A stretch of 64,000 nucleotides of DNA from Byssovorax sp. Its GTDB lineage: Bacteria; Myxococcota_A; Polyangia; Polyangiales; Polyangiaceae. The position numbers were made by a program, and so were the translations under genes. The notes under the pieces were generated by a model. That model searched no databases, was not told the DNA's origin, and was given only the letters and a program-made list of their open reading frames with translations. Location: positions 1 through 64,000 of the forward strand of contig JANYGI010000167.1 in NCBI GenBank assembly GCA_025362495.1, in the 5' to 3' direction. Positions 2,112 to 29,335 of this stretch are shown here, piece by piece (the stretch's first letter is position 1; the number at the start of each line of letters is the position of its first letter).

Positions 2112-2127
2112 GGAGAGTCGGAACTCA

Positions 2128-2226: not shown

Positions 2227-2256
2227 CGAGATCCGGTCTGCCTCTCTTCCGGTGGG

Positions 2257-3759: not shown

Positions 3760-3957
3760 CGCGCCGGACTTTAGCGCCCCTGACGGCCGCCGGGGCCATT
3801 TGCTGACCTGATCGCGTCCGTGGTGGGGATGACGCCGTGCCAGCCTGTCGTCCTTCTCTTCACCGATGGTTCAGGTTCTTCCTGATGAAAGGCCTGCCTG
3901 CATTGTCGCTAGTCTTCAAACCTAGGGACCTTCACATCGATTGAATGAGGTCGAGTC

Positions 3958-5283: not shown

Positions 5284-5296
5284 GGGATCGCGGATC

Positions 5297-6040
5297 GTGG
5301 AATCGCATCCGTTCGGCGACGAAGAGTCCACCGATCCGGGCCTCGCCGAGCTCGGTGGATCGTTCGGCGCTCCGCTGACGCCGGTGCCCAGCGCGGTCCT
5401 CGACGTGGCGCGATCGCTCCCCGGGATCGAGCCGCGGATCCTCGCCGCGTGGCGCGAGTGGCTCTCCGCGCTGGCGACCGACGCCGAGGCCGCGATCGCC
5501 GCGGCGCACGTCTACGGCGAGCTCGGCCCCGAGGCGCGCGACGCGTGGCTCGACGCCCTCCACGAAGACGGGCCCAACCTCGACGTGCCGCGCGTCGCGA
5601 TCTACGCGCCGCTGCTCTCGGTCGAGGCCGATCCGGCGCGCCGCGAGCGGATCGAGATCGCCATCAGCACCGATCCCGACGGCCCGATCCTCGGCGGCGG
5701 CATCCGCGCGCTGCGCGGCATCGCCGGCGACGGCGCGCGCCTCGTCGCGCTGGTGAGCCCGCTCTACCTGCGCTTCGTGCGCGTGCTCTGGTGTCGCTTC
5801 GTCTCCGACGAGGGCTTCGACTGGGTCCGCCACGATCCGATCCTCGGCGAGCAAGACGCCCCGCGCGACGGCGCCGTCGTCGACGGGGTACGACTCGAGG
5901 TCACCCCGCTGAACCCGGTGATTGAAGAGCTGGCGCTCGCCGTGCTCGCGCAGCGCCGCAAAGGCATCGAGCTGCCCCGCTCACTCCACCTCTTCGCCAA
6001 CCTCTTCGATGCCCACGTCGAAGAGCTCCCCCTCCCTTGA
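5297..6040 (+). CDS. Hypothetical protein (247 aa)
   Basis: Starts at a GTG 13 nt after the preceding small gene. The sequence is helical and acidic with no signal peptide or membrane segment. The N-terminal half contains alternating Ala-rich helices (WREWLSALATDAEAAIAAA). The middle block RLVALVSPLYLRFVRVLWCR may be a buried core helix. I do not recognise a family. Its position after the DUF4911-like gene and before a long palindrome suggests a two-gene transcript that ends at 6041-6163. Confidence 0.7.
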   Translation: MESHPFGDEESTDPGLAELGGSFGAPLTPVPSAVLDVARSLPGIEPRILAAWREWLSALATDAEAAIAAAHVYGELGPEARDAWLDALHEDGPNLDVPRVAIYAPLLSVEADPARRERIEIAISTDPDGPILGGGIRALRGIAGDGARLVALVSPLYLRFVRVLWCRFVSDEGFDWVRHDPILGEQDAPRDGAVVDGVRLEVTPLNPVIEELALAVLAQRRKGIELPRSLHLFANLFDAHVEELPLP

Positions 6041-6163
6041 GACCGGGCTCGACAGGCTGCTGCGCGCCGCGAATCGTCGGTCGGCCTCGGTCAGCGTACT
6101 TGCGTACGCCTCCCTCGGCGCTCCCTGGCTTCGCGGCGCTCGCGACGCCTGTCGAGCCCGGTC
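6041..6163. repeat. 123-bp long imperfect palindrome beginning at a stop codon
   Basis: Perfect 17-nt arms GACCGGGCTCGACAGGC (6041-6057) and their reverse complement (6147-6163) enclose further partial pairing (GCGCCGCGAA against its complement) and a central GCGTACTTGCGTACGC near-palindrome. The element begins on the base after the stop of the 5297-6040 gene and ends 47 nt before the next start. It could form a very long cruciform or transcript hairpin and so terminate or attenuate transcription. It resembles mobile REP-like intergenic elements, but no second copy is present in this window. Confidence 0.65.
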
Positions 6164-6210
6164 GGGTGGCGTTATTGCAGGGAGTGAGAGGGGTGAAGGG
6201 GGTGAGGGGA

Positions 6211-6744
6211 ATGAGAGGGGTTGTTCTCAGTGTGGCTATTGCTGGGATGGTGGCTGGGTTGATGGGGTGTTCGGGCGCGGCCGCGGTGGCGCCGGAGGCT
6301 GCTGTTGCCGTGGTGGCGACGGGGGCTCCGGTGCGGTTTGCTTTCGAGACGCTGGAGGGGAAGCCGCTGACGGGGGAGTCGTTGCGGGGGCGGATCAGCG
6401 TGATCGGGTTTCTGACGACGTATGACTTTTACTCGCAGGCGGAGGCTCGGTTTCTTTCGTCGATCGCGCGTCGGCACGCGCCGCGGGTGAACGTGGCGGC
6501 GTTGATCCTCGAGGCGAGCGAGAACCGGACGCTGGTCGAGGCGTTCACGGCGGCGCTGAAGCTGCCGTATCCGGTCGCGATGGCGGACGAGGCCACCATC
6601 GCGGGGGAAGGGCCCTTTGCCGGGCTGCACAACGTGCCCAGCATCGTGATCCTCGATCGCGAGGGCCGCGAGGTCTACCGCCACGTGGGCCTGGTCAATG
6701 AGGCCGCAATCGAGGCCGCCATCCGCGCCGTCGAGCAGCGCTGA
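6211..6744 (+). CDS. Redoxin/TlpA-fold lipoprotein lacking the CxxC motif
   Basis: A 177-residue protein. Residues 1-20 form a lipoprotein signal peptide ending in LMGC, so C20 would be lipidated. The remainder has the thioredoxin-like layout of TlpA/AhpC redoxins: F-E-T-L-E-G-K near the start, VIGFLTTYDFYSQAE at the redox-motif position, then VPSIVILDREGREVYRHVG carrying the cis-Pro and the following strand. The expected W-C-x-x-C is replaced by TTYDFYS, so it cannot do dithiol chemistry. I chose the ATG at 6211 because it places the signal peptide correctly. It is probably a membrane-anchored, non-redox thioredoxin-fold protein. Confidence 0.8.
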   Translation: MRGVVLSVAIAGMVAGLMGCSGAAAVAPEAAVAVVATGAPVRFAFETLEGKPLTGESLRGRISVIGFLTTYDFYSQAEARFLSSIARRHAPRVNVAALILEASENRTLVEAFTAALKLPYPVAMADEATIAGEGPFAGLHNVPSIVILDREGREVYRHVGLVNEAAIEAAIRAVEQR

Positions 6745-6810
6745 GCCGTCGCGCCCCGCGCGCCTCCCCGACTCCAGAGCTCCGCACGAAACAAGCCCGC
6801 CGCCCCGCAA

Positions 6811-7629
6811 TCAGCGCTTCGGCCAGATCCCCGCCCGGGGCTGAGCATGCTCATCGAGCCGAGGCAGCAACAAAGCCAACCCCCGCAAATGCGCCGCCAC
6901 CGGCTCCACGAAAATATCAGCCCCCATCAATCCAAGCGATCCCGCCCGCAACCCGGCATGCCGCCCCTGCAACAGCGCCTCTTGCACCAGGCGCGCTTCC
7001 CCGACGCCGAGCCGCGCACTGGCAGCCACCACGTCCGACGGTATCGGCCCCGCATGGGCAATCACCCGCACCCCGGCCTCGCCCCACCCGGCGCGCAGGA
7101 TCCGGGGAGCGCGGCGCCCCGGCCGCTCGTCGAGGTGAATGAACGTCGCCCCGACGTCGGCGCTGCCCTCGATCACGGCGCGGACGACGGCCTCGTGCGA
7201 GCCGAGGAAGCGATCGCTCGCGAAGGTGCTCTCGGGATCGATGCCGAGCGAGCGCAGGTGAGCGCGGATGAGCAGGTAACCGGAGACGCTCTGTCGATCG
7301 ACCCAGGCCGCGCGCGCGCCGGCGAGCTCGGTGTGAGAGCGCACCCGCGACGACTCGGCGACGAAGAGCGCCGTCGAGTACGACGACACGCCGCCGCGCA
7401 CCGGCACCGCGAGCGGGATCGCCCGCCCGTCGCAGGCAGCTTGCGCCGCGAGGATCGGCGGGAGCCACGCCACGTCGACGTCGCCCATCTCCATCGACTC
7501 GATGAGGCGATGATAGTGCCACAGGGCGATCCCCGTCACCTCGAGGCCTGTCGCGGCGCCCAGCGCGCGACAGAAGGTATCGACGTGCTCGCGCGTCGAT
7601 CCGTTCGTCAGGGCGACTCCGACGCGCAC
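6811..7629 (-). CDS. PhnD/TAXI-like phosphonate-type substrate-binding protein, no signal peptide
   Basis: A 272-residue protein with the PhnD-like periplasmic binding fold: VGVALTNGS at the start, MGDVDVAWLPPILAAQ, VSSYSTALFVAE, GSHEAVVRAVIEGSADVGATF. These match PF12974-type proteins that bind phosphonates or phosphite. No secretion signal is present even if an upstream GTG at 7716 is used. I prefer the GTG at 7629 because GAGG sits 7 nt upstream and the domain starts immediately. No ABC permease or ATPase is adjacent, so a sensory or enzymatic role in the cytoplasm is possible. Ligand unknown. Confidence 0.75.
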   Translation of the reverse strand: MRVGVALTNGSTREHVDTFCRALGAATGLEVTGIALWHYHRLIESMEMGDVDVAWLPPILAAQAACDGRAIPLAVPVRGGVSSYSTALFVAESSRVRSHTELAGARAAWVDRQSVSGYLLIRAHLRSLGIDPESTFASDRFLGSHEAVVRAVIEGSADVGATFIHLDERPGRRAPRILRAGWGEAGVRVIAHAGPIPSDVVAASARLGVGEARLVQEALLQGRHAGLRAGSLGLMGADIFVEPVAAHLRGLALLLPRLDEHAQPRAGIWPKR

Positions 7630-7919
7630 CCGAGCGCCTCGTTGCGCCGGGGGATGGCTGGAGCCGACCACGCGCGTAAGCTCGCAGGCTTGCGAACGCC
7701 GGTCAAGGCGCAGCACCTGCTTCTACGCGGGGATTCGACTGGTTTTTTGTGGATCTGAAGACGAGCGACGCGGCCAGTGGCGACGGCCTGCCACGGGTCC
7801 ACTGACCTTCGCTCCTGGAGAGTCGCGCGATGACGCGGGGCCTCTGGGCCCGATACCGTGTCGAGTACACCGGGGTGCACATCGCGATGGCGGCGCAGCC
7901 TTCGCCGCGCCACGCGAGA

Positions 7920-7991
7920 GAGCCTCTGTCCTGGAGAGCGCGTCGTGCGCGCTCGGGCCCCACACCCGGGGCACCCTCAGGAGAGAGGCTC
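7920..7991. terminator. Hairpin-rich region downstream of lipoprotein gene
   Basis: A 17-nt near-perfect inverted repeat (7920-7936 against 7975-7991, GAGCCTCT-TCCTG core) encloses two smaller hairpins, GAGCGCG/CGCGCTC and GCCCC/GGGGC. It begins 8 nt past the stop codon of the minus-strand gene at 8000. There is no T-run, so a factor-dependent terminator or mRNA 3'-end stabiliser is the reasonable reading. Confidence 0.4.
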
Positions 7992-7999
7992 GTCCGGGA

Positions 8000-8629
8000 C
8001 TACATGCGCTTGAAGAAGAGGGTCTGCGCCTTCTTCGGGTCCTTCGCGAACGGGTCCTTCACCGAGAAGGTGTTGTCGTCCGTGAAGGTGATGGTGATCT
8101 CCGCGCCCTTGAGATCCTTCTTGGTGGTCGCGTCCTTGCCGAGCTTGATCGTGAGGTTGTTCGGGTCGTCCTTGGACGTGACCTCGAACTTGATCGTGTG
8201 GACGGGCTTGCCCTTCACCGAGAAGGTGTGGGTGTCGGCCGTGTTCTCGATCGTGACCTGCGCGAGGCCGTCGACGATGGTCTTCATCGCGGCGTCGTGC
8301 TTCTTGGAGTCCTTCTCCTTCGCGAACTTCGTCTTCGCGGAAGCCTCGAAGGCATCCTTCACGTCGCCCTGGAAGTCCTGGACGAACTTGCCCGTGAACT
8401 TCTCCTTGGCCGGCTTGGCGGGGGGAGCGGGCGCGGGGGCCGGCTCAGCCGAGGTGGCCGTGGTGGGGGCGGGGGCCTCCATCGTGGCGGCCGGGGGCGC
8501 CGAGGGCGCATCCGTCGGCGAAGCGGAGGGCTGGGGCGGCACCTCGGGGGTGGCCGGGTCGCCGCAGCCTGCCATCAGGGCGGTCGAGAGGGCGAGCAGA
8601 AGTCCGTACGACAAGCGCCTGTTGTTCAT
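8000..8629 (-). CDS. Lipoprotein with Pro/Ala-rich linker
   Basis: A 209-residue protein. The signal peptide ends in the lipobox LMAGC at about residues 18-22. A long Pro/Ala/Thr linker (about 25-75) is followed by a lysine-rich globular domain (about 75-209) with repeated beta-strand blocks such as THTFSVKGKPVHTIKFEVTS and NTFSVKDPFAKD. ATG 8629 has GGAGAG about 9 nt upstream; longer frames upstream are not needed. No family recognised. It is probably anchored to the inner leaflet of the outer membrane. Lysine enrichment is unusual against the neighbouring Arg-rich genes. Confidence 0.8.
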   Translation of the reverse strand: MNNRRLSYGLLLALSTALMAGCGDPATPEVPPQPSASPTDAPSAPPAATMEAPAPTTATSAEPAPAPAPPAKPAKEKFTGKFVQDFQGDVKDAFEASAKTKFAKEKDSKKHDAAMKTIVDGLAQVTIENTADTHTFSVKGKPVHTIKFEVTSKDDPNNLTIKLGKDATTKKDLKGAEITITFTDDNTFSVKDPFAKDPKKAQTLFFKRM

Positions 8630-9042
8630 GCGTAAACTCTCCGTGGGGGTAATTTCGCCCGCGTTCGAAGGCTCGATAGCGGACTTTGCTGGCGACGTCG
8701 AGATCGACACGTTCGCGCCATGTCTAGACGCCCGTGGGCTTCGCAATGGCTCGCCGGACCGTACTGGATTCCGATTCGGCGGCCCAACCTTCGTCGAAAG
8801 GCGCCCCCTCCGGTGGGAGCGGGCGCCCGCCGCGCCGTCCCGATTCACCGGTCGTTGCGCGGAAAAGCACGCGAGGACCATGAACGGGGAGCTGAGCGAC
8901 CGGGGAAAGGCGAGCCGCTCTTAACCCAATCGTGGGGCTCTGTCGATAGTTCTGAGAGGAAGGGAAGGGCTCGCAGCGAGAGAGGCGCTGCGGGGAGGCC
9001 CGTGGCCGGCATCACGCGACGCCGGCCGGTCGGACGCGCGAG
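8630..9042. other. 413-bp intergenic region with a hairpin at 9004-9027
   Basis: No convincing gene. The left part must hold the promoter of the minus-strand lipoprotein, but I see no clear -35/-10. At the right end, GGCCGGC (9004-9010) pairs perfectly with GCCGGCC (9021-9027) about 15 nt past the stop of the gene ending at 9043. Without a T-run this is at best a weak terminator. Confidence 0.4.
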
Positions 9043-11001
9043 CTACTCGGCCGCGATCGGCTCGTACCTGGTCGTGGTGACCTCGGGGTTGTTCTCGAAG
9101 TACGCCTTGCCGGCGAGCTTCCCGAGGAGCGGCCCGAAGCGGTCCTTGGCCTTGCCCTGGACGAGGTCGCGGATGAGGAGCCAGTCCTGCTTGAGGCGGT
9201 CGTGGAGCTCGGGATCGGCCGCCGTCTTCGCCGCCTTCGTCGCCAGCGCGGGGAGGCTCGAAACGAAGCCGATCGTCGACTTCGCCGTCGCGGTCGCGCG
9301 CTTCGTCGCGCGCTCCATGACCGACTGCTGGATCAGCGGGGCGACCTCGTACACGAGGTTCGCCGCCGAGCCCGCCACGGTGTGGGGCGAGTGGTGGAGC
9401 GGGCTCGCGTACTTCGGGTGCGACGCGATGAACGCGCGGACCTGCGCCTCGGTGAGGCCGGTCTTCTCGTAGGCCTTGGTGAGCTCGGTCTCGGCCGCGA
9501 TCCGGGCCTTGAACATGTACATCTGCACGCGCGAGTAGAAGTTCGTCGCGCCGTCGCCGCTCGTCTCGACCGCGCAGAAGATCGTGCCCGGGTAGCGCGA
9601 GGTGATCAGCGACTGCACGCCGTCGGACACGCCCGACGAGGGCATGCAGCCGAAGGGCTTCACGCTCACGGTGACGTGGGCCTTCTGGTTGACGACGTTG
9701 ACGATGAGCTTTCCGACCTCCATGTGGCCCTCGCCGCCGCGGAGATCGTTCGAGTAGTACTGGTGCGCGACCTCGGCGACCTGATCCATGTCGGGGAGGT
9801 GGTAGCCGAAGAGGCCGAGCGGGATCGCGAAGGCCTGGAAGCCGACGCGAAGGCCCGCCTCGGCGAGGCGCATCGTCGCGAGGCGCTTGGCGACGCCGAA
9901 CTCGTCGAGGCCGGCGAGGCCGTAGAGCGAGTCGTCGGCGCCGCGGAGATCACGGCGCTCGCGCGTGTCGCGGGCGTTCTCCCAGATGTTGTAGAGGAGC
10001 CACGCGGTCGTGAGCTGGATGTCGTTCTCGCCGCCCTCGCTCTCGAGGAAGCGCTGGAGGGCGTAGTTGCCGTCACCCTCGGTCGTCATGGCCCAGAACT
10101 CGCCGATGATCGACGTCTTCGCCCGCGGGCGAAGCTTGTCGACCTCGACGGCCTCGATCACCTTGCGGGCCTTGTAGAGCGCGAGGAAGACGTTGGTCTT
10201 CTCGAAGAGCGACGCGTAGAGGATCTTCTTCGCGCTCTCGACCGCGATGTTGGTCGCGCCGGCCGTGACCTCGTAGGGGCGCACGCGGTACGCGAGGGCG
10301 TTGAGCACGTCGCCGCAGACGATGGCCTTGATGATCGCGATGAAGAACGCGGGGTTCATCTCGAGGCCGACGTCGTCGCCGGTGGCCTGCGAGAGGCCGC
10401 CCGTCTGCTGGAAGAGCATGACGCGGAAGCCGTCGAAGCCGGCGTCGCGCAAGGCCTTGCGGTACTCGGTGACGTACATGCCGAAGCGGCACGGACCACA
10501 GGCGCCGGCCGTGACGAACACGTAGTTCTTGATGATGTCCGCGGCGGGGATGCCGTCCTTGTCGCGCAGATCGATCAGGTGCTTCACCAGCGAGCCGACG
10601 GTGAAGTACGTCGGGTTGCACTGCCCGCGGTTGCCGAACTCCTTGCCCGTTTGCAGGCCCTCGTTGTTGCTCACGCCGAAGTAGTTGACGTTGTAGCCAA
10701 GGCCGCGGAGCGCGCCTTCGGTGAGGAAGTCTTGCGCCGCCGTCAGGCCGCTGATGAGGAGCGTCACGTTGGCGCGCTCGCTCTTCTTCATCACGGGCTT
10801 GAGCATGCTGTCGACCCACTGTCGACGCTCGGCCTTGATGCCGAGGCGCGCGCGCTCCGACTCTTCGAAGGCCAGGAGCTCGGCCTCGACGTCGATGTCG
10901 TCGGCGACGGGCTTGCTGGAGATGAGCGGAAGGCTCCGCTTCTTGCGGTCGGTATCGTGACCGGTATCGTGACTGGACTCGATGGTGTGGTCGATGGTCA
11001 T
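9043..11001 (-). CDS. 2-hydroxyacyl-CoA dehydratase D-component-like protein (COG3581-type)
   Basis: A 652-residue protein of the CoA-substrate-specific dehydratase group. The conserved block VTAGACGPCRFGMY (about residues 167-180) supplies cysteines expected to ligate an iron-sulfur cluster. LFQQTGGLSQ and VKPFGCMPSSGVSD are further family blocks. RBS-like AAGGGAAGGA precedes the ATG. It lies 15 nt downstream of the large activase gene, so the two form one operon. In many bacteria the activase domains and this component are fused in a single 1400-residue protein; here they are split. Likely role is ATP-driven, ketyl-radical-type reduction or dehydration of an acyl-CoA; the substrate is unknown. 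Confidence 0.82.
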   Translation of the reverse strand: MTIDHTIESSHDTGHDTDRKKRSLPLISSKPVADDIDVEAELLAFEESERARLGIKAERRQWVDSMLKPVMKKSERANVTLLISGLTAAQDFLTEGALRGLGYNVNYFGVSNNEGLQTGKEFGNRGQCNPTYFTVGSLVKHLIDLRDKDGIPAADIIKNYVFVTAGACGPCRFGMYVTEYRKALRDAGFDGFRVMLFQQTGGLSQATGDDVGLEMNPAFFIAIIKAIVCGDVLNALAYRVRPYEVTAGATNIAVESAKKILYASLFEKTNVFLALYKARKVIEAVEVDKLRPRAKTSIIGEFWAMTTEGDGNYALQRFLESEGGENDIQLTTAWLLYNIWENARDTRERRDLRGADDSLYGLAGLDEFGVAKRLATMRLAEAGLRVGFQAFAIPLGLFGYHLPDMDQVAEVAHQYYSNDLRGGEGHMEVGKLIVNVVNQKAHVTVSVKPFGCMPSSGVSDGVQSLITSRYPGTIFCAVETSGDGATNFYSRVQMYMFKARIAAETELTKAYEKTGLTEAQVRAFIASHPKYASPLHHSPHTVAGSAANLVYEVAPLIQQSVMERATKRATATAKSTIGFVSSLPALATKAAKTAADPELHDRLKQDWLLIRDLVQGKAKDRFGPLLGKLAGKAYFENNPEVTTTRYEPIAAE

Positions 11002-11016
11002 GGCGAGATCCTTCCC

Positions 11017-14661
<3,645 letters not shown>

Positions 14662-14759
14662 GGGAGGCCCCTCTTGTTCGGCACTGGAACGACGGTGTTT
14701 TCGCGGGGAAATGCGCCCTGATTCACTCCAGCGCGCGCTCCTCTGAAACTTGCCGTCGG

Positions 14760-14781
14760 CGACTGACTGGCCAGTCAGTCG
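14760..14781. promoter_or_regulatory. 22-bp perfect palindrome, probable TetR-family operator
   Basis: CGACTGACTGG is followed directly by its reverse complement with no mismatch. It lies in the 298-bp divergent region between the activase gene (start 14661, minus) and the TetR gene (start 14960, plus). TGACTGAC/GTCAGTCA half-sites are typical of TetR/AcrR operators. It is 99 nt from the activase start and 179 nt from the regulator start, so repression of the dehydratase operon with some autoregulation is the simplest model. Confidence 0.75.
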
Positions 14782-14959
14782 TCCAGGGGTACACCCTTCC
14801 CAGGACCAGAGCAAGAACGGGAAGTGACCCAGCGGCACCAAAATCGTGCCGCGCATTTCGTTCCATCTTGGCTTCTCGAACGAAAGCATGCGAGACGCTC
14901 GGATCAATCCGCCGAGAGGGCCATCGGTGATGCTCGGGTGATGCTAAGAGGCTCGCGCC

Positions 14960-15643
14960 ATGGGCAAGATCGAGCGCCGTAAAGAGCTGATGCGCGCGGC
15001 GCGCGAGGTGTTCTCGACCAAGGGCTACCACGACGCCAAGGTCGACGACATCGTGGCCCTGGCCAAGGTCGCCAAGGGGACGTTTTACCTTTATTTTGCG
15101 GACAAACGCTCGATTTTTGTCGAGCTCGTCGGCACCCTGTTCGAGCGCATCGGCGCCGCGGTGTTGAAGGTCGATCCGCGGTCCGACATCGAAGAGCAGG
15201 TCAAGCACAACATCCGGGCGATCGTCGCGGCCCTGCTCGACGATCCCGCGCTGACCAAGATCCTGTTCTCGTACGCGGCCGGGCTCGATCCGGCCTTCGT
15301 GACGGCGATTCGATCGTTCTACGACGGCTCGAAGGCGCTGCTCGAAGCGAGCTTGATCGAGGGGCAGGGCCTGGGGATCGTGGCGCCGGGCGACGCGCGG
15401 CTCTTCGCGACGTTCACGCTGGGCGCGCTGAAGGAGCTGGTCTTCGAGAACGTGACGGCCGAGAAGGCCATGCCGCGCGAGGAGATCGTGAACGAGCTCT
15501 TTGCCTTCTTGCAGGGCGGCTATCTGCGGATCGGGCCGCCGCGAGCGGCGTCGCAGCCGCCGCCGGCGCCCGCTGCGTCGAAGAAGCCGACGCCGGCGAA
15601 GAAGGCGGCCACGCCGGCGAAGAAGGCGGCTCGGAGCGGCTGA
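14960..15643 (+). CDS. TetR/AcrR-family transcriptional regulator with Lys/Ala/Pro tail
   Basis: A 227-residue regulator. The N-terminal helix-turn-helix (about 5-55) reads RKELMRAAREVFSTKGY...VDDIVALAKVAKGTFYLYF, a textbook TetR domain. The middle helices (60-195) would form the ligand pocket and dimer interface. The last 25 residues are a low-complexity tail of KKxTPAKKAA-type repeats, like histone H1 tails, that probably adds non-specific DNA affinity. It diverges from the dehydratase/activase operon with a palindromic operator between, so it most likely controls that operon; the inducer would plausibly be an acyl-CoA, but this is inference. Confidence 0.93.
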   Translation: MGKIERRKELMRAAREVFSTKGYHDAKVDDIVALAKVAKGTFYLYFADKRSIFVELVGTLFERIGAAVLKVDPRSDIEEQVKHNIRAIVAALLDDPALTKILFSYAAGLDPAFVTAIRSFYDGSKALLEASLIEGQGLGIVAPGDARLFATFTLGALKELVFENVTAEKAMPREEIVNELFAFLQGGYLRIGPPRAASQPPPAPAASKKPTPAKKAATPAKKAARSG

Positions 15644-15646
15644 TCC

Positions 15647-15662
15647 CCGGCCTGTCGGCCGG
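15647..15662 (+). terminator. Short GC hairpin after the TetR gene
   Basis: CCGGCC-TGTC-GGCCGG begins 3 nt after the TetR stop codon. It is a perfect 6-bp stem with a tetraloop but no T-run, so intrinsic termination would be weak. Confidence 0.35.
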
Positions 15663-15820
15663 CGACATGCGTCGAAATCACGGTGACTCGTCGGTCAGCG
15701 GGGAGTCGCCGGGGCGCCCCGCCGAATCGGTCAAGCAGTGAGGCCCCAAGGCATGCTTGACAGGCGCTTTGCGGGGGCGCTCTGCTGGATGCTGGCAGAC
15801 ACTTGCGAGAGACCTCTTCT

Positions 15821-18800
15821 ATGCGCTTTTCCCGCACGCTCCCGGGCCTGTTGCTGTTCGCGTTCATCCTCGTTTTCGCCGTCGCTCCGGGGTGCGGGGC
15901 CGGGCCCGAGCCGCCGGCTGCAGAGCAGCTCCGGCGATCGTTCCCCGCGCAGGCCGCCGCGATGCTCGACCGCCGCGAGGCCTTCGCCCCGGTGGCCGAA
16001 GGGTTCGGGAGCCGCGGCGCGAGCGGCGAGCCCGGCGCGGGCGGCCGGGTCCAGGCGACCCTGCCGCTGTCCGCGAGCGAGGCGATCGCGCTCCGGGTGC
16101 CTGCGAACGGCTTCAAGATCACGGTGCGCGAGCGCGACGCGGCGGGCGAGAGCGCCCTCGCGGGCAGCGCCGTCACCTACGCGCGCGTCAACGGCTCGTC
16201 GTTCTGGGCCGCGACCGAGGCCGGCGTCGAAGAGTGGTTGATGCTCGACGACGGCGTGGCGCGCGCGGGGCAGGTCGTGGCCTCGTGGGAGATCGAGGGC
16301 GGCGCGGTCCGGCAGGACGGTGACGCGATCGTCATCGACGACGCGTCCGGGGCGCCGCGGATGCGGGTGACCGCGCCGACGGCGTTCGCGGCGGGCGGTC
16401 GGGCCGTGCGCGCGACGCTCGCGGCCCACGGCGCGACGATCGATCTCTCGGTCGATGCGAACGGCGAGGCGGCGCTCGTCGATCCGCTCTGGGTCGCGGC
16501 GGGCGCGCTGAAAGTCGCGCGCTACAACCACTCGGCGACGGTGCTCGGCAACGGCAAGGTGCTGGCCGCCGGCGGCAACGGCAGCGCCGGCGTCCTCGGC
16601 AGCGTCGAGCTCTACGATCCGGTCGCCGACGCGTGGACGACCGTCTCGTCGATGCTCACGCCCCGCACCAACCACCGCGCCCTGCTGCTCGGCAATGGCA
16701 AGGTCCTGGTCGTCGGCGGTACCGGCACGGCGGGCGTGCTCACCTCGGCCGAGGTCTACGATCCCACGCTCGGCACCTGGGCTTCCACGGGCGCGATGAC
16801 GCTCCCGCGCGACGCGCCGTCGATGGCGCTGGTCGGCCCCGGCAACGCCAAGGTGCTCGTCACGGGCGGTGTCTCCGGCGGCCTGCCGACGAACCTGACG
16901 GAGCTCTACGATCCGCTGGGCGGCACGTGGGCCCTCGCGGCGCCGATGCTGATCGCGCACTCGACGCACACCACCACGCTGCTCGGCACCGGCGAGGTGC
17001 TGGTCGTCGGCGGGCGCTCCACGGCGAACATCAGCGTCGCCGGCGCCGAGGTCTACACGGTGTCGAACAACACCTGGACGGCGGTGGGCCCGCTGCCTTC
17101 TCCGCGCGCGGAGCACAACGCGACGCTGCTGCTCAGCGGCAAGCTCGGCGTCACCGGCGGGATCAACTGGACCACCCCCACCAGCGGCGGCGGCCAGCAA
17201 TCGCTCGTCGTTTACGATCCGGTCGCCAAGACATGGACGCAGGGCGGCGGGACTGGCTATCACGACTACGGGACTGCCACGCTCCTCGCCAACGGCGGGC
17301 TGCTGCTCGCGGGCGGCAACGTCTTCCCGACGCTGGTGGACTTCCTCGATCCGCTCGGCGTCGCGTGGACCAACGCGGGGCCGCTCCCCGGCGTCGGGCA
17401 CACCTACCACACGGCCTCGCTGCTTGGTAACGGCAAGGTCCTGCTCGCCGGCGGCTACAGCGGGTCCACGAATACCTACCTCCAGGCCTGCGATCTCTAC
17501 TCGCCTTACGTGGCGTCGACGACGTGCGCCGTCGCGGGAGAGTGCCAGAGCGGGTTCTGCGTCGATGGATTCTGCTGCAACGCGGCCTGCACCGGATCCT
17601 GCCAGGCGTGCAGCGCGGCCAAGACCGGGGGCGCCAATGGCACCTGCGGCAACGTCACCATCGCGACCGATCCCGACAACGATTGCAACGCGCAGGCTAC
17701 GTCGACCTGCGGGACCAACGGGCTCTGCGACGGCACGGGCAAGTGCCAGCTCTACGTGAGCGGCACGTCGTGCCTCGGATCGTCGTGCACCGGGAGCACG
17801 CTCACCAGCGCCTCGACGTGCAACGGCGGCGGGACGTGCGTCGCCGGCGGGACGCAGAGCTGCGGCGCGTACCTGTGCGCGGGCGCCGTCTGCGGGACGA
17901 GCTGCACGACGGCGGCGAACTGCACGGTCGGCAACGTTTGCATCGCCGGCAAGTGCGTGGCGCCGCTGCCGACGGGCTCGGTGTGCACCGCGGCGAGCCA
18001 GTGCTCGAGCGGATTTTGCACCGATGGATTCTGCTGCGGATCGGCGTGCAACGGGCTCTGTCAGGCGTGCAGCACGGCCAAGACCGGCGGCCCGAACGGC
18101 ACCTGCGGCGGCGTGACGATCGCCACCGATCCCGACAACGAGTGCGCGGCGCAGGCGCAGGCCACGTGCGGGACCAACGGCTCGTGCAACGGCGTCGGCG
18201 CCTGCCAGCTCTTCGTGACGGGCACGTCGTGCGTCGCGCCTTCGTGCACGGGGAGCACGCTCGACAACGGCTCGACCTGCGACGGCGTGGGCGCCTGTGC
18301 CTCGGCGGGGACGACGACCTGCGCGCCCTACGTGTGCGGCGTCGGGGCCGCGTGCAAGACGACCTGCGCCGCCGACGCCGACTGCACCGCGGGTAACCTC
18401 TGCATCGGCGGCAAATGCGGGACGCCGCTCGGCGATGGATCGGCCTGCGCGAACGCGGGGCAGTGCAACAGCGGCAACTGCGTCGACGGAGTCTGCTGCA
18501 ACACGGCGTGCTCGGCCGGGGCGTGCGACGCGTGCTCGGTCGCGACCGGCGCGCTGAAAGACGGCGTCTGCGCGCTGCTGTCGGGTACCGCGTGCGACGA
18601 CGGCGACGTCTGCACCCAGAACGACACGTGCTCGGTCGGCGCGTGCATGCCCGGCGGTCCGGTGCAGTGCGCGGCGATCGACATGTGCCACAGCGCGGGC
18701 GTGTGCGACTCGACGATGGGCGGCTGTACGAACCCGGTCGTCGCCGATGGATCGTCGTGCGTCGACAAGGACGGCTGCACGCAGAACGACACCTGCCAGC

Positions 18801-19528
18801 AAGGGAAATGCGTGGGTGGCCCGGTGTGCCCGCCGCCCGCGGACGGCTGTCAGGTGGGCAGCTGCAACGCGCTCGGGCAATGCGACTACGCGCCGGTCAG
18901 CGACGGGACGTCGTGCAGCGACAATGACGCCTGCACGCAGACGGACGTGTGCAAGGCCGGCAAATGCGCCGCGGGGACCCCGAAGGTCTGCGCGCCGATC
19001 AACGGTTGCCACGCAGAGGGCAAGTGCGCGCCGACCACGGGTGCCTGCGCCGACGGCGCGATGCTGGCGCCGGCGTGCCCCGCGGATCCGGACTGCGAGA
19101 CGATCATCACCGCGTGTGACGTCGCGACGGGCGCGTGCGTGAAGTCGGCGAAGCCCGACGGGACGCCGTGTCAGAGCACGGGCGAGTGCCTCGCGGGGAG
19201 CTGCGTCGGTGGCCAGGGGACGAGCAGCGCGAGCTCGGGCAGCGCGAGCACCGGCGGCACGGGCGCGGGCGGCACGGGCAGCGCGAGCACGGGCAGCGCG
19301 GGCACGGGCAGCGCGGGCACGGGCAGCACCAGCACCGGGGGCGTCGGCGGCGGCGCGAGCACCGGAGCGAGCGGCAGCGGCGGTAACCCCGGCGATGGCA
19401 CCGTGGCCCCGGCGGGCGGCTGCGGGTGCAGCACGGTGGGTACGTCGGAGAGCCGGGCGCCGTGGCTGCTGCTCGGCCTGGCGCTGCTCGCGGGTCGGCG
19501 TCGTCGCCAGGCCCGCGCCGCGGGCTGA
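15821..19528 (+). CDS. Kelch-repeat, Cys-rich surface lipoprotein with MYXO-CTERM-like tail
   Basis: A 1235-residue exported protein. ATG 15821 gives a signal peptide ending in VAPGC (lipobox-like). Residues about 215-560 contain kelch-type repeats (ALLLGNGKVLVVGG, SAEVYDPTLGTW), forming a beta-propeller. Residues about 565-1120 are dense in cysteine pairs, with an internal duplication of about 153 residues. A Ser/Gly/Thr linker follows, then GCGCS, a hydrophobic helix (LLLGLALLAG) and RRRR: a MYXO-CTERM sorting signal, expected to be processed by a myxosortase for surface display. Carrying both an N-terminal lipobox and MYXO-CTERM is notable. Possibly an adhesin or cell-contact protein; no catalytic motif is seen. 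It ends before a clear terminator hairpin. Confidence 0.9.
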   Translation: MRFSRTLPGLLLFAFILVFAVAPGCGAGPEPPAAEQLRRSFPAQAAAMLDRREAFAPVAEGFGSRGASGEPGAGGRVQATLPLSASEAIALRVPANGFKITVRERDAAGESALAGSAVTYARVNGSSFWAATEAGVEEWLMLDDGVARAGQVVASWEIEGGAVRQDGDAIVIDDASGAPRMRVTAPTAFAAGGRAVRATLAAHGATIDLSVDANGEAALVDPLWVAAGALKVARYNHSATVLGNGKVLAAGGNGSAGVLGSVELYDPVADAWTTVSSMLTPRTNHRALLLGNGKVLVVGGTGTAGVLTSAEVYDPTLGTWASTGAMTLPRDAPSMALVGPGNAKVLVTGGVSGGLPTNLTELYDPLGGTWALAAPMLIAHSTHTTTLLGTGEVLVVGGRSTANISVAGAEVYTVSNNTWTAVGPLPSPRAEHNATLLLSGKLGVTGGINWTTPTSGGGQQSLVVYDPVAKTWTQGGGTGYHDYGTATLLANGGLLLAGGNVFPTLVDFLDPLGVAWTNAGPLPGVGHTYHTASLLGNGKVLLAGGYSGSTNTYLQACDLYSPYVASTTCAVAGECQSGFCVDGFCCNAACTGSCQACSAAKTGGANGTCGNVTIATDPDNDCNAQATSTCGTNGLCDGTGKCQLYVSGTSCLGSSCTGSTLTSASTCNGGGTCVAGGTQSCGAYLCAGAVCGTSCTTAANCTVGNVCIAGKCVAPLPTGSVCTAASQCSSGFCTDGFCCGSACNGLCQACSTAKTGGPNGTCGGVTIATDPDNECAAQAQATCGTNGSCNGVGACQLFVTGTSCVAPSCTGSTLDNGSTCDGVGACASAGTTTCAPYVCGVGAACKTTCAADADCTAGNLCIGGKCGTPLGDGSACANAGQCNSGNCVDGVCCNTACSAGACDACSVATGALKDGVCALLSGTACDDGDVCTQNDTCSVGACMPGGPVQCAAIDMCHSAGVCDSTMGGCTNPVVADGSSCVDKDGCTQNDTCQQGKCVGGPVCPPPADGCQVGSCNALGQCDYAPVSDGTSCSDNDACTQTDVCKAGKCAAGTPKVCAPINGCHAEGKCAPTTGACADGAMLAPACPADPDCETIITACDVATGACVKSAKPDGTPCQSTGECLAGSCVGGQGTSSASSGSASTGGTGAGGTGSASTGSAGTGSAGTGSTSTGGVGGGASTGASGSGGNPGDGTVAPAGGCGCSTVGTSESRAPWLLLGLALLAGRRRRQARAAG
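17543..18463 (+). repeat. In-frame tandem duplication in the Cys-rich region
   Basis: Two successive units of 459 nt (17543-18001) and 462 nt (18002-18463) encode matching 153-154-residue blocks. Each opens with C-x-SGFC-x-DGFCC, passes through TIATDPDN and CGTNG, and closes near GKC. A partial third unit (CNSGNCVDGVCC) follows. Divergence is moderate, so the duplication is not recent. Confidence 0.85.
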
Positions 19529-19600
19529 TCGGGTAGCCGAGGGGCTCTCGCGAGAGGGCCTCTCGGCGCCGCAGCTCCTCGACGAAGAGCTGAAATGAAG

Positions 19601-19633
19601 AAGGCGCGAACGAGGAGATCTCGTTCGCGCCTT
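19601..19633 (+). terminator. Strong hairpin terminator after the surface protein gene
   Basis: A perfect 14-bp stem (AAGGCGCGAACGAG and its complement) with a 5-nt loop GAGAT is followed by TCTCG. It lies 72 nt after the stop codon of the 1235-residue protein. The T-tract is short, but the stem is by far the strongest in the window. Confidence 0.75.
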
Positions 19634-19710
19634 TCTCGTCGTGCCCGGTGGCGAGCTCGACGCGGGGAAGCGGGCTAGAGCACCGAACAGGTTGAAAAGT
19701 CGGAGAATTC

Positions 19711-19795
19711 ACAGGGAGGCGAGGAGGACCGGGAGACCCGAGGGAAAATCCTTCCCAATCTTCCTCTCACCTCCCCGTCCTCCTCGCCTCCCTGT
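19711..19795. repeat. Palindromic intergenic repeat, GGGAGGCGAGGAG family, copy 1
   Basis: Arms of 25 nt (19711-19735 and 19771-19795) pair with one mismatch; each holds ACAGGGAGGCGAGGAGGAC or its complement. Pairing extends weakly outward into AATT-containing flanks. The 35-nt loop is AT/pyrimidine-rich. A second copy with the same arm core occurs at 37970-38088. Both lie between genes, this one between a terminator and a convergent kinase gene. Confidence 0.75.
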
Positions 19796-19843
19796 TAAAT
19801 TTCCGGTCTTCTTTTTTTTTGGCATTTCAAGCTGATCGGCGCC

Positions 19844-20704
19844 CTAGAAGCGGGGTATCTGGCGGAGATCGTCCCAGGCTTCCCGGGCCGACTGGTAGCG
19901 GTGCGCGTCGCGGCGGCGAAGGAGCTTGGCGATCACGGTGGCGACGGGCGTCCCGAGCGCTTCGGCCTTCTGGCGCGGCGTCCCGTCGGCGATCTGGCGG
20001 GCGATCTCCTCGTAAGGGCCAGAGACGTCCATGGCCGGTTGGCCCGAGTGCATCTGGTAGAGCAGGAGTCCGAGCTGGTAGAGATCGCTCTGGGCGGTGG
20101 TGTAACCGGCCGTGACGAGCTCGGGCGTGAGGATCTTGGGGTTGGCCACCTGAGGCCGAAACCAGCGCGTGCTCCCCTCGAGCTGGTGGGCGACGCCGAA
20201 GTCGGTGAGCTTGACGATCGGCTGCCGATCGATCTGCGAGATGAGCACGTTGCCGGCGTGGAGATCGGAGTGGACGACGCCGTTGTCGTGCAGGTACGCC
20301 AGCGTCATCAGGAGCTGACGGGCGATCTCGACGAAGAGGGCGTCGGGCATCGGCCGGCCGAGCAGGCCGCGCAGGCTGGTGTCACAGCGCTCGAGCGAGA
20401 GATAAAAGAGGAAGTTGTTCTCGAACGCGTCGTGGATGTAGACGATGTTTGGGTGGCGGAAGCTTTCGAGCCGCTGCATCTCGCGCGACCACTCTTCCTT
20501 GACCACCTGGTAGGGCTTGTTGGCCGGCCGCAACATCTTCAGCGCGTAGGGCTGGTCGAACGGGCCGACGCACTCGTACACCGAGCCGTACTGGCCATCT
20601 CCGATCAGCGCGCCGACGGTGTAATTGCCGCGCGTCGATGTCAGCGTCGTCCCCGGGACGGGGAACGGGATCAGATGCGAGCCAGTGGTGGACCAGGACG
20701 ACAC
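19844..20704 (-). CDS. Ser/Thr protein kinase (Hanks-type), cytoplasmic
   Basis: A 286-residue kinase consisting of little beyond the catalytic domain. The glycine loop is GDGQYGSV (about 35-42), the ATP-anchoring Lys is in YALKML (K56), the catalytic loop reads HSDLHAGN (H145, D147; the usual Arg is Ser), and DFG is at 168-170. Loss of the HRD arginine suggests regulation without activation-loop phosphorylation. The activation segment ending in the APE position reads ILTPELVTAGY. The start is a GTG at 20704. No membrane segment. It lies upstream of nothing obvious; the TerB-like gene on the same strand precedes it. Confidence 0.9.
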   Translation of the reverse strand: MSSWSTTGSHLIPFPVPGTTLTSTRGNYTVGALIGDGQYGSVYECVGPFDQPYALKMLRPANKPYQVVKEEWSREMQRLESFRHPNIVYIHDAFENNFLFYLSLERCDTSLRGLLGRPMPDALFVEIARQLLMTLAYLHDNGVVHSDLHAGNVLISQIDRQPIVKLTDFGVAHQLEGSTRWFRPQVANPKILTPELVTAGYTTAQSDLYQLGLLLYQMHSGQPAMDVSGPYEEIARQIADGTPRQKAEALGTPVATVIAKLLRRRDAHRYQSAREAWDDLRQIPRF

Positions 20705-26702: not shown

Positions 26703-27341
26703 ATGCCCGAGCGAACTCCGGTCAACGTCTTCTTCTGCTACGCGCCTCAGGACGAAGAGCTCCGCGGCGAGCTGGAGACGCACCTCGCGCTGCTGAAGCG
26801 CCAGGGCTTCGTGCAGAGCTGGAGCTCGCGGCGCATCAGCGCGGGCCAGGAGTGGCGCGGCGCGATCGACCGGCACCTCGAGGAAGCCGACGTGATCCTC
26901 GCGCTGATCAGCGCCGATTTCCTCGCGTCGGATTACCTCTACGACGTCGAGCTGCGCCGGGCCCTCGAGCGGCACCGGACCGAGCGCACGATCGTGGTCT
27001 CGATCGTCCTCCGCCCTTGCGATTACGCCAGCAGCGACTCGCCGCTGCGCGACGAGATCGATCTGCTGCTGCCCTCGGGAGGCCGCCCCGTGACGAGCTG
27101 GCCGTCGCACGACGACGCCTTCGCCGACGTCGCGCAGGGGCTGCGCACGCTGCTGCATCGCGGCGGACGCGGCCAGAGCGGGAGGACACCGGCAAACCCT
27201 CCCCCGGCTCACCTCTCCCAGGCGTCAGGGAGGTGGGCCCGAGCCAGACGACGCGCGAAGGATCACACCCGGCGCTGCCCGCGACGTGGAACGTCCCGCA
27301 CCGGCGCAACCCCACGTTCACCGGCCGTGATCACGAGCTAG
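26703..27341 (+). CDS. TIR-domain protein; 5' part of a frameshifted TIR-NB-ARC-TPR gene
   Basis: The first ~150 residues form a TIR domain: VNVFFCYAPQDEELRGELETH, then SAGQEWRGAI, ADVILALISADFLAS and DYLYDVELRRAL. The Glu in DVELRRAL occupies the catalytic NADase position of bacterial and plant TIRs. After about residue 152 the frame becomes Arg/Pro-rich nonsense, while the -1 frame continues a plausible linker into an NB-ARC domain. The slip most likely lies in 27150-27215, which includes a C5 run (27201-27205) in CCTCCCCCGG. Either the gene is broken, the base call is wrong, or a programmed -1 shift is used. Alone, this part would be a TIR NADase without a sensor. Confidence 0.75.
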   Translation: MPERTPVNVFFCYAPQDEELRGELETHLALLKRQGFVQSWSSRRISAGQEWRGAIDRHLEEADVILALISADFLASDYLYDVELRRALERHRTERTIVVSIVLRPCDYASSDSPLRDEIDLLLPSGGRPVTSWPSHDDAFADVAQGLRTLLHRGGRGQSGRTPANPPPAHLSQASGRWARARRRAKDHTRRCPRRGTSRTGATPRSPAVITS

Positions 27342-29335
27342 CGGAGCTCCACGCCGGCCTCGGGTCGGCGCTGCCCGGCGCTTCGTTTCGCGCGGTGAGC
27401 GGCCTCGGGGGCGTCGGCAAGACGCAGCTCGCGGTCGAGTACGCGTACCGCCACGCGGCCGACTACGACGTGGTCTGGTGGCTGCGCGCCGAGGAGCCCG
27501 CGCAGCTCGCGGCCGACTTCGCCGAGCTCTCGTTCGCGCTCCGCCTCCGAGCGCGCACCGATCCCGATCAGCGCCTCGCCGTCGAGGCCGCGCGGAAGTG
27601 GCTCGCGCAGAACGGCAACTGGTTGCTCATCTTCGACAGCGCGCGCGATCCCGCGACGGTGGCGCCGTACCTCGGCACCTCGGGCGCGGGGCACGTGATC
27701 ATCACCTCGCGCCACTCCAGCTGGCGCGGCCAGGCGATCCCGCTCCAGCTGCGCGAGCTCGCGCGCCAGGACTCGATCGCGTTCCTCCTCGGGCGCAGCG
27801 GCCGCAGCGACGACGGCTCGGCCGAGCTGCTCGCCGAGGCCCTCGGCGATCTGCCGCTCGCGCTCGCGCAGGCCGCGGCCTACATGGAAGAGTCGGGCGC
27901 GCCGATCAACTTCTACCTCGAGCTCTTCGAGAAGCGCCGCCACGAGCTGCTCCGTCGCAGCGCCCTCGGCGAGACCGCGCCCAGCGTCGCCACGACGTGG
28001 GACATCGCATTCGAAGAGGCGCAGAGCCGATCTCCCGCGGCCGGCGAGCTCCTCCGCCTCGCGGCGTTCTTCGCGGCCGACGACATCCCGCGCGAGGGCC
28101 TCGCCCCCGGCGCGGAGTACCTCCCGCCGGCGCTCGCGGACGCCGTCAACGATCCGCTCCTCCTCGACGACGCCATCGCCGCGCTGCGCCGCTGCTCGCT
28201 CGTCGAGGCCCAGGAGCGCTGGCTCTCGGTGCACCGCCTCGTGCAGGCCGTCGTGCGCGATCGGCTCTCGGACGAGGAGTACACGTTCTGGGCCGAGGCG
28301 GCCGTGCGCGTCGTCTACGAGGGCCTCTCCGCCGATCTCGAAGAGGCCGGCACCGGCTCGCCTGATCGTGGGCGCTTCCTCCCGCACGTGCTGCCCGCGG
28401 CGGACCACGCCGAGGCCGCCGGCGTCGCGCGCGAGGTCACCGAGCAGCTCCTGATCCGCGCCGCGAAGTACCACCTCGAGACCGGCGCCTTCATCGCCTC
28501 GAAGGACTTGCTCGAGCGCGCTCGCGACATCGCCACCGCGATCCACGGGCCAGATCACGCCCACGTCGCGACGATCTACACCAAGCTGAGCCGCGTCCTC
28601 GGCGAGCTCGACGATCCCGAGGCGCTGACCTACGCGGAGCGGGCCCTCGAGATCGACATCGCGCTCTACGGCGAGGACCACTCGTCGGTGGCGCGCGACT
28701 ACAACAACATCGCCAAGGTGCTGCGCAAGCGCCGCGATCTCGCCGGCGCGATCCTCAACGTCGAGCGCGCGCTGGCCATCGACGAGCGGCTCTACGGGCC
28801 CGACGACGCCGAGCTGATCCCGAGGCTCAACGATCTCGGCTTCCTCCGCCGCGTGCAGGGCGATCTCGACGGCGCGCGCCAGGTGCTCGAGAGCGCGCTC
28901 GTCCGCGGCGAGGCAGCGTGGGGCGCCGATCACCCCGACCTCGGATCGCTCCTCGGCAACCTCGCCGACGTGCTCCCCGAGCTCGCCGAGCGCGAGCGCC
29001 GCGCCGGGAACTTCGACCTCGCGCGCGCCAGGCTCGTGGAGGCGCGCGGGCTGCTGGAGCGCGCCGTGGCCATCGGCGAGGCGACCTACGGGCCGAACCA
29101 CTACGTCGTCTCCATGCGCCGCAACAACCTGGGCCTGCTCCTGCGCGACCTCGGCGACATCGCGGGCGCGTTCCGCGAGATCACGCGGGCGCTGGAGATC
29201 ATGAAGAAAGAGGTCGGCGTCGGGCACCGCCGGGTGATCCAGTTCGAGAAGAACCTGGAGGTCGTGAGCCGCGAGTTCAAGCGCAAGAGCGGCACGATGC
29301 CCGCCGTCGGCAAGATCCCGTCAGGCGGCTCGTAG
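27233..29335 (+). CDS. NB-ARC ATPase with TPR repeats; 3' part of the frameshifted NLR-like gene
   Basis: The -1 frame relative to the TIR part encodes VPHRRNPTFTGRD, the usual entry into NB-ARC, then Walker A GLGGVGKTQLA, Walker B-like WLLIFDSA, TSRHSSW (sensor) and GDLPLALAQAAAYM (GxP motif). From about 28400 onward the protein is TPR repeats of the kinesin-light-chain type (YTKLSRVLGEL, YNNIAKVLRKRRDLAGA, RRNNLGLLLRDLGDIAGAF). No good start codon exists near the domain entry: GTG 27233 overlaps its own GGGAGG. That favours one fused protein of about 875 residues. The architecture equals STAND/NLR immune or signalling ATPases. Confidence 0.78.
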   Translation: MGPSQTTREGSHPALPATWNVPHRRNPTFTGRDHELAELHAGLGSALPGASFRAVSGLGGVGKTQLAVEYAYRHAADYDVVWWLRAEEPAQLAADFAELSFALRLRARTDPDQRLAVEAARKWLAQNGNWLLIFDSARDPATVAPYLGTSGAGHVIITSRHSSWRGQAIPLQLRELARQDSIAFLLGRSGRSDDGSAELLAEALGDLPLALAQAAAYMEESGAPINFYLELFEKRRHELLRRSALGETAPSVATTWDIAFEEAQSRSPAAGELLRLAAFFAADDIPREGLAPGAEYLPPALADAVNDPLLLDDAIAALRRCSLVEAQERWLSVHRLVQAVVRDRLSDEEYTFWAEAAVRVVYEGLSADLEEAGTGSPDRGRFLPHVLPAADHAEAAGVAREVTEQLLIRAAKYHLETGAFIASKDLLERARDIATAIHGPDHAHVATIYTKLSRVLGELDDPEALTYAERALEIDIALYGEDHSSVARDYNNIAKVLRKRRDLAGAILNVERALAIDERLYGPDDAELIPRLNDLGFLRRVQGDLDGARQVLESALVRGEAAWGADHPDLGSLLGNLADVLPELAERERRAGNFDLARARLVEARGLLERAVAIGEATYGPNHYVVSMRRNNLGLLLRDLGDIAGAFREITRALEIMKKEVGVGHRRVIQFEKNLEVVSREFKRKSGTMPAVGKIPSGGS

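What the first reader, a model, noticed from the sequence alone, without database searches (positions are those of the whole stretch)
26703..29335. NLR-like TIR-NB-ARC-TPR gene split by a single frameshift
The TIR part and the NB-ARC/TPR part lie in different frames, linked by a -1 change. Both halves are well conserved, including the candidate TIR Glu, GGVGKT and TPRs, and no good internal start exists for the second half. That pattern suits recent inactivation of a defence/signalling gene, a base-call error at the C5 run near 27201, or a programmed -1 shift that would produce both a TIR-only protein and a full-length NLR. The third option would be new for this class. What is seen is the frame change; the rest is inference.
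Basis: partly seen in the sequence, partly recalled or inferred. Interest (0 to 1): 0.78.

Follow-up and report, generated by a model that had tools for sequence, protein, structure and literature searches.

The report
Frameshifted TIR–NLR immune-like gene
A bacterial immune-receptor-like gene appears to be read in two ways, because a conserved slippery sequence and RNA hairpin in the message let some ribosomes slip back one base and make a long receptor instead of a short TIR protein.

Summary
The frame change is real and is unlikely to be sequencing error or recent decay. Nine genomes from four genera of one bacterial family carry a related gene with TIR and NB-ARC-like parts in different frames. 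Heptamer plus stem arms are 21/23 invariant across the four genera, against 5/23 for spacer and loop and 34% for the surrounding gene. One stem pair is U-A, C-G or G-C in different lineages. The heptamer's first base is always A, supplied by uncommon codons (GCA, TTA, CAA). In seven genomes the zero frame stops right after the slip site, once as TGA instead of TAG; in six of these the ORF is SIR2-TIR.

Best explanation: programmed -1 ribosomal frameshifting that yields a TIR-only protein and a TIR-NB-ARC-TPR receptor. Frameshifting was not measured. Internal initiation at GTG 27233 is the main rival. Two of the nine copies carry a further frame break. My searches of an open-access library found no paper on frameshifting in a bacterial NLR.

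The parts
26703..27341 (+). Zero-frame ORF: TIR-only product, 212 aa (the last 46 residues lie beyond the slip site, on DNA that also codes the -1 frame)
   Evidence: Pfam TIR_2 46.4 bits; PADLOC ThsB profile 158.5 bits
27180..27186 (+). SD-like GGGAGGA, 7 nt upstream of the heptamer: possible upstream stimulator, this strong in the window only
   Evidence: anti-SD duplex -10.3 kcal/mol; G066 -5.4, the other seven -2.2
27194..27200 (+). Slippery heptamer A_AAC_CCT, in register with the TIR frame
   Evidence: in register in 9 of 9 loci, last base T or C; of 21 other TIR loci, 20 lack AAACCCY in the TIR hit and the 300 nt after it, and one (L124) has it inside the domain
27201..27205 (+).
   Evidence: 5 nt in 9 of 9
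27206..27239 (+). Hairpin, 12 bp in the window (27206-27217 with 27228-27239, loop 27218-27227), conserved core 8-9 bp
   Evidence: fold -21.6 kcal/mol; 98.8% of 81 cells pair; inner pair UA/CG/GC between lineages. Shuffle z-score of the window stretch is only -0.14
27200..29335 (+). -1 frame: linker, NB-ARC-like STAND NTPase, DUF7779, TPRs; reached by a shift at the heptamer, full product about 877 aa (reckoned from coordinates)
   Evidence: GGVGKT at 27407, WLLIFD at 27620, DLPLALA at 27848
27233..27235 (+). In-frame GTG in the 3' arm of the hairpin: rival internal start
   Evidence: GTG at this aligned place in 9 of 9; weak SD pairing, -1.7 to -3.2 kcal/mol

Best explanation
The gene is a TIR-NLR-like (TIR / NB-ARC-like STAND / TPR) gene expressed through programmed -1 ribosomal frameshifting. 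Ribosomes that stay in the TIR frame make a TIR-only protein of 212 aa. A fraction pauses at the hairpin (27206-27239), slips back one base on A_AAC_CCT (27194-27200), and goes on in the -1 frame to make TIR-NB-ARC-TPR of about 877 aa. Shown: the frames, the conserved element, its specificity and, in relatives, selection on both frames. Inferred: that slippage occurs, its frequency, and that both proteins act. Likely working model (inference): the NLR product senses a trigger and oligomerises, and its TIR domains seed free TIR subunits into active NADase assemblies; the shift fixes the sensor-to-effector ratio, as the dnaX shift fixes tau to gamma (dnaX recalled, no call).
For: (1) TIR and NB hits lie in a -1 relation in the window and in seven relatives; in G066 the net offset differs because of a further break; the in-register heptamer is in 9 of 9. 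(2) A 46-nt element aligns without a gap in 9 of 9; the stem pairs in 98.8% of 81 cells, 26-46% when slid by 1-3 columns; one pair has three Watson-Crick types. (3) Heptamer plus stem arms: 21 of 23 columns invariant over the four genera, spacer plus loop 5 of 23, the rest of the aligned stretch 369 of 1088; the same mask elsewhere reaches at most 18 (mask chosen after seeing the alignment). (4) The heptamer's first base is the third base of GCA in the window (5 of 384 Ala codons in seven window genes), TTA in G066 (0 of 213 Leu codons in four local ORFs, one of them with low GC3) or CAA in the other seven (5 of 50 Gln codons in G100 and 2 of 49 in G007, the junction codon counted): three amino acids, each in an uncommon A-ending codon. 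(5) Ser codon TCA in the 5' arm, 1 of 179 Ser codons in the seven window genes, is kept in 9 of 9. (6) The zero-frame stop follows the slip site at the same place in 7 of 9, as TAG six times and TGA once. (7) In six genomes of one genus dN/dS is 0.087 for TIR in the zero frame and 0.275 for NB in the -1 frame. (8) The single-frame tandem copy has no AAACCC in the 700 nt from its TIR hit in 7 of 7. (9) Covariance model R1, built from these loci, hits each of the nine genomes once with E under 1e-8, at this place; next best E 0.076. (10) In E. coli 61 of 64 heptamers exceed twice background with the IS3 pseudoknot, and A_AAC_CCC and A_AAC_CCU are not among the three that fail; C_CCY is among the shifty tetramers (PMC4066793, passages).
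Against: No frameshifting was measured. A_AAC_CCY is not among the strongest E. coli motifs. The window hairpin is no more stable than shuffles of its GC-rich stretch (z -0.14). Within the six close genomes the element is not less variable than other 46-nt windows (911 of 1519 have as few variable sites), and whole-element pairwise identity is not exceptional (69 to 360 windows elsewhere are as high in six pairs). Six of nine pairs never vary; covariation rests on one pair with changes on both sides, and 165 of 500 shuffles also reach one such pair. Two of the nine copies carry a further frame break: G066 at its P-loop and G101 between SIR2 and TIR, so some copies may decay or be misassembled. 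A GTG in the -1 frame is conserved in 9 of 9. In the window and G066 the zero frame runs 46 and 51 codons past the heptamer, without the prompt stop of the other seven.
Confidence: 0.82

Rival explanations
1. Two overlapping genes: a TIR gene, and an NB-ARC-TPR gene that starts at the GTG in the 3' arm of the hairpin (27233), translationally coupled through the hairpin. No slippage.
For: GTG at this aligned place in 9 of 9; a hairpin over a start codon is a known way of coupling (recalled).
Against: Does not explain the in-register heptamer at a fixed 5-nt distance or the uncommon A-ending codons. SD pairing is weak in all nine (-1.7 to -3.2 kcal/mol), but the six starts I assumed for other window genes are weak too (+1.1 to -6.5), so this counts little. 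In the window and in G066 the TIR stop lies 106 and 121 nt downstream of the GTG, far for reinitiation.
Confidence: 0.1
2. Recent inactivation: the window gene lost one base and is a young pseudogene.
For: Single-frame TIR-NB-ARC-TPR genes exist next door in relatives; two relatives' copies carry a further frame break (G066 at the P-loop, G101 between SIR2 and TIR).
Against: The break sits at the same conserved element in nine genomes; downstream coding is open in the window, and in six relatives under purifying selection.
Confidence: 0.05
3. Base-call or assembly error at the C5 run 27201-27205.
For: Homopolymer in GC-rich DNA; the assembly is a draft of 240 contigs.
Against: The same -1 relation in seven other assemblies, four of them single contigs; the spacer is 5 nt in all nine although its letters differ.
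Confidence: 0.02
4. Transcriptional slippage rather than ribosomal slippage yields the second frame.
For: Would also give two products from one gene.
Against: No long homopolymer at the conserved part; the hairpin at fixed spacing fits the ribosome (the rule is recalled).
Confidence: 0.01

Closest known systems
Programmed -1 frameshifting in bacteria (dnaX, IS3-family transposases)
   Same: X_XXY_YYZ heptamer in register, downstream hairpin after a 5-nt spacer, in the window also an upstream SD-like stretch; zero-frame stop soon after in seven relatives
   Different: Host gene is a TIR or SIR2-TIR NLR-like gene; heptamer is A_AAC_CCY, not A_AAA_AAG (the latter for dnaX recalled); slippage not measured
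Bacterial TIR-STAND (NLR-like) proteins, single frame
   Same: TIR, P-loop NTPase, DUF7779, TPRs in the same order; the tandem gene of relatives is such a protein (952-956 aa where complete; domains for G100)
   Different: Here TIR and NTPase are in two frames joined by a conserved element
FxSxx-COOH system proteins FxsC (TIR-like) and FxsT (TPR), NCBIfam
   Same: NB/TPR half passes the FxSxx_TPR cut-off (390.7 over 300)
   Different: TIR half misses FxsC (16.7 against 130); no FxsB over its cut-off in the window's genome (best 69.2 against 370); of the nine genomes only G101 has one (376)
Thoeris ThsB and sirtuin defence proteins Dsr1/Dsr2
   Same: TIR half matches PADLOC ThsB (158.5 bits); in six relatives the ORF carries SIR2_2 before TIR, in G100 weakly Dsr1-like (26.5 bits)
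   Different: A ThsA partner was not looked for; joined to an NLR-like part; far below the Dsr1 cut-off of 1400

Membership tests
Programmed -1 ribosomal frameshift gene | Slippery heptamer in register with the upstream frame, conserved | tested here: met
   9 of 9 loci
Programmed -1 ribosomal frameshift gene | Downstream structure at short fixed spacing | tested here: met
   5-nt spacer, 8-9 bp conserved stem in 9 of 9, one outer pair broken in G099; no excess stability over shuffles
Programmed -1 ribosomal frameshift gene | Both frames under coding selection | tested here: met
   six genomes of one genus: dN/dS 0.087 (zero frame TIR), 0.275 (-1 frame NB); not computed for the window lineage
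Programmed -1 ribosomal frameshift gene | Reduced variability over the signal | tested here: inconclusive
   not reduced as a whole within one genus or in pairwise whole-element identity; heptamer and stem arms reduced across genera
Programmed -1 ribosomal frameshift gene | Measured frameshifting | not testable with these tools
   needs reporter or mass spectrometry
TIR-STAND / bacterial NLR-like protein | TIR domain with candidate catalytic Glu | tested here: met
   TIR_2 46.4 bits; Glu83 aligned to a Glu of Cat1; activity not tested; Gln at this place in G007
TIR-STAND / bacterial NLR-like protein | NB-ARC domain by Pfam's own cut-off | tested here: not met
   NB-ARC 14.4 bits against 23.5 in the window; the tandem homologue in G100 scores 39.9, and GGVGKT and a Walker-B-like stretch are present, so it is called NB-ARC-like, STAND-type, not a Pfam NB-ARC member
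TIR-STAND / bacterial NLR-like protein | C-terminal repeats (TPR) | tested here: met
   TPR_12 113.4 bits
FxSxx-COOH system | FxsB radical SAM partner in the genome | tested here: not met
   best 69.2 bits against cut-off 370 in G000

The most novel reading that the evidence does not exclude
The frameshift is itself part of the immune switch: phage-induced changes in translation (tRNA damage, ribosome pausing) alter slippage at A_AAC_CCY and so alter the ratio of free TIR or SIR2-TIR effector to NLR-bound effector, which would make the mRNA junction an infection sensor and ratio-setter of a bacterial NLR.
Probability: 0.1. Interest if true: 0.93.

Novelty: new variant of a known kind. Interest (0 to 1): 0.8.

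Why it matters
Programmed frameshifting in bacteria is best known from dnaX and mobile elements (recalled). A conserved case in an NLR-like gene would mean that a bacterial immune-type receptor and its stand-alone effector are made from one gene at a ratio set by the ribosome. That is a simple, testable handle on how TIR effectors and NLR sensors are balanced. It also warns that pipelines may call such genes pseudogenes or split them: six genomes of two other genera carry SIR2-TIR-[shift]-NB in this form beside a single-frame paralogue.

Tried and rejected
Pattern search over 377 genomes found nothing, not even the window, because my pattern had the spacer one base short; it is no evidence and was replaced by the covariance model. 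One search (309 genomes) gave hits in 10: eight at this gene and two weak partial matches (G508, G078; E 0.006 and 0.01). G066 was not among them: not drawn, or lost to the stricter filters that call used. One search (377 genomes) gave the window and G355; the latter lies antisense to a 643-aa ORF that looks like a sigma-54-type regulator, and I take it as chance. The scan of IMG/VR found no relative. Relatives on plasmids (17 records) were not read for TIR or frame; nor were the 49 other loci beyond a tblastn for TIR, which hit only L005 among them. The four more distant NB relatives (G501, G504, G577, G581) gave no TIR by tblastn; that test also missed the TIR of G097, which Pfam finds in one frame with its NB part, so their layout is open. 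Tree of 35 TIRs (bootstrap not settled): the frameshift-bearing TIRs fall in two supported groups (window with G066; seven others); one origin is neither shown nor ruled out. Whole-element conservation was not striking. FxSxx membership was rejected. No structure was predicted.

Corrected on rechecking: one of seven training genes was read out of frame; one search counted window 1-20000 twice; one search did not scan three of the 21 other TIR loci. The figures given here are those. One search added the SIR2 test for five more relatives and showed a further break in G101; for that I lowered the main odds from 0.83 to 0.82 and raised the pseudogene rival from 0.04 to 0.05.

Full report
What is there. 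The window's TIR ORF runs from ATG 26703 to TAG 27341 (212 aa), and an NB-ARC-like/TPR frame, -1 to it, is open to 29335. Pfam gives TIR_2 for the first and TPRs, DUF7779 and sub-threshold NB-ARC for the second; NCBIfam gives FxSxx_TPR over its cut-off; PADLOC gives ThsB for the TIR part. Codon preference leaves the TIR frame at about 27150 and favours the -1 frame from about 27240. Neighbours include a protein kinase, a PLP-dependent enzyme and a hybrid histidine kinase; I saw no defence island there, but did not scan the whole window for one.

Is it a break? In the order, 10 of 183 genomes have an NB relative at E up to 1e-40. In nine of these ten (the window's G000, G066, G007, G099-G104) a TIR is followed by NB in another frame. 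The offset from TIR to NB is -1 in the window and in G007 and G099-G104; in G066 the net offset differs because a second, separate frame break lies at its P-loop. The tenth, G097, has TIR and NB in one frame. G007 and G099-G104 also carry, just downstream, a second gene with TIR and NB/TPR in one frame (952-956 aa; cut by a contig end in G104), with no AAACCC in the 700 nt from its TIR hit (7 of 7). A more distant relative, L005 from a Chloroflexota MAG, is also one frame.

The element. All nine frame-split loci hold, in register with the TIR frame, the heptamer A_AAC_CCY, then five bases, then a hairpin with arms RGCTCACC and GGTGRGCC; the 46 nt align without a gap. In the window this is 27194-27239, with a 12-bp stem. 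Over the window, G066, G007 and G100, 21 of 23 heptamer and stem-arm columns are invariant, against 5 of 23 for spacer and loop and 369 of 1088 elsewhere; no other placement of the same mask passes 18. The ninth pair is U-A in the window, C-G in G066 and G-C in the other seven; the fourth is U-G or U-A; G099 breaks the first. The base before AAC is A in all nine although the codon is GCA, TTA or CAA, each uncommon in the genes counted.

Specificity. In 208 kb (both strands of 104 kb of the window's contig) 7 AAACCCY sites occur, and only this one is followed at +5 by a stem of 8 bp or more; 5 of 384 X3Y3N sites have such a stem. Of the 30 TIR loci held, the nine frame-split ones have the heptamer at the TIR end; of the other 21, one (L124) has AAACCCT in register inside the domain and 20 have none up to 300 nt past the TIR hit. 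Other X3Y3N heptamers do occur in some of them. Covariance model R1, built from these nine loci and so bound to match them, finds one strong hit in each of the nine genomes (weakest E 9.6e-9), the next best being E 0.076; in 309 genomes of the class all eight strong hits are at this gene.

Selection. Among the six G099-G104 copies, dN/dS is 0.087 for TIR in the zero frame and 0.275 for the NB part in the -1 frame, whereas the same NB DNA read in the other two frames has ratios above 1 and stops in nearly all (5-8 per copy in one frame; 1 in five copies and 0 in one in the other). The zero-frame stop sits 10 nt after the start of the heptamer in G007 and G099-G104, as TAG in six and TGA in G099, which suggests that prompt zero-frame termination is kept. 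In the window and G066 the zero frame runs on for 46 and 51 codons. Against: within the six genomes the 46-nt element as a whole is not unusually invariant (911 of 1519 windows as low), pairwise identity of the whole element is ordinary, and the hairpin is not more stable than shuffles.

Domain layouts. The zero-frame ORF is SIR2_2-TIR in six of the seven G007/G099-G104 genomes; in G101 SIR2_2 lies in another frame than TIR, a further break. The -1 frame adds an NB part that stops early; in G100 Pfam finds no TPR in it. In the window and G066 the NB match runs on through the TPR region, and the window ORF starts at its TIR. So the shift joins a NADase-type effector ORF to an NLR-like part in both layouts. 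The TIR tree does not settle whether the element arose once; the gap-free element argues for common descent.

Mechanism. The anatomy fits programmed -1 frameshifting: tandem slippage on A_AAC_CCY with hairpin stimulation, in the window perhaps also with an SD-like GGGAGGA upstream. In E. coli 61 of 64 heptamers, A_AAC_CCC and A_AAC_CCU included by exclusion, exceed twice background with a strong stimulator (PMC4066793, passages), so the motif is plausible but not the strongest. The rival is initiation at GTG 27233; it leaves the heptamer, its fixed spacing and the uncommon codons unexplained. The function (TIR effector and TIR-NLR sensor in a set ratio, probably antiphage) is inference from domains.

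Literature. Searches for frameshifting with TIR, NLR, phage-defence or STAND terms or with Sorangium and for bacterial NLRs gave listings and abstract beginnings only, and showed no report of it; two searches listed 15 of 82 and 20 of 307 papers. One search listed frameshift papers, from which three were opened. In PMC3711429 a term search for TIR, NB-ARC, Sorangium, tetratricopeptide, AAACCC and defense found nothing. In PMC5009743, of which 300,000 of 475,107 characters are held, a term search for TIR domain, NLR, Sorangium, myxobacter, the heptamer and phage defen found nothing. The library is open-access papers only, so this is weak evidence of novelty.

Noticed in passing
L093:10944-12443 (-), L096:4263-5837 (+), L092:11093-12781 (-), L094:10494-12089 (-), L091:3373-6222 (+), L097:3241-4962 (-): In six relatives the frame-split gene carries a SIR2_2 domain before the TIR: two NADase-type domains, then a frame shift to an NB part, next to a single-frame TIR-NB-ARC-TPR gene (possible paired-receptor locus).
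   Followed up: partly
L095, about 11660-12840 (-): In G101 SIR2_2 and TIR of this gene lie in different frames, a further break in a single-contig assembly.
   Followed up: no
L096:5376-5831: At the place of the candidate catalytic TIR Glu, G007 has Gln (YEAQM against YDVEL/YDVEM), so this TIR may be inactive or act as a scaffold.
   Followed up: no
L090 (G066), around 5560: The G066 homologue has a second, separate frame break at its P-loop besides the conserved -1 junction: decay or assembly error.
   Followed up: no
window 27200-29335: NCBIfam's FxSxx_TPR equivalog model passes its cut-off here although the genome has no FxsB over cut-off: the name may be over-applied to TIR-STAND proteins.
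   Followed up: partly
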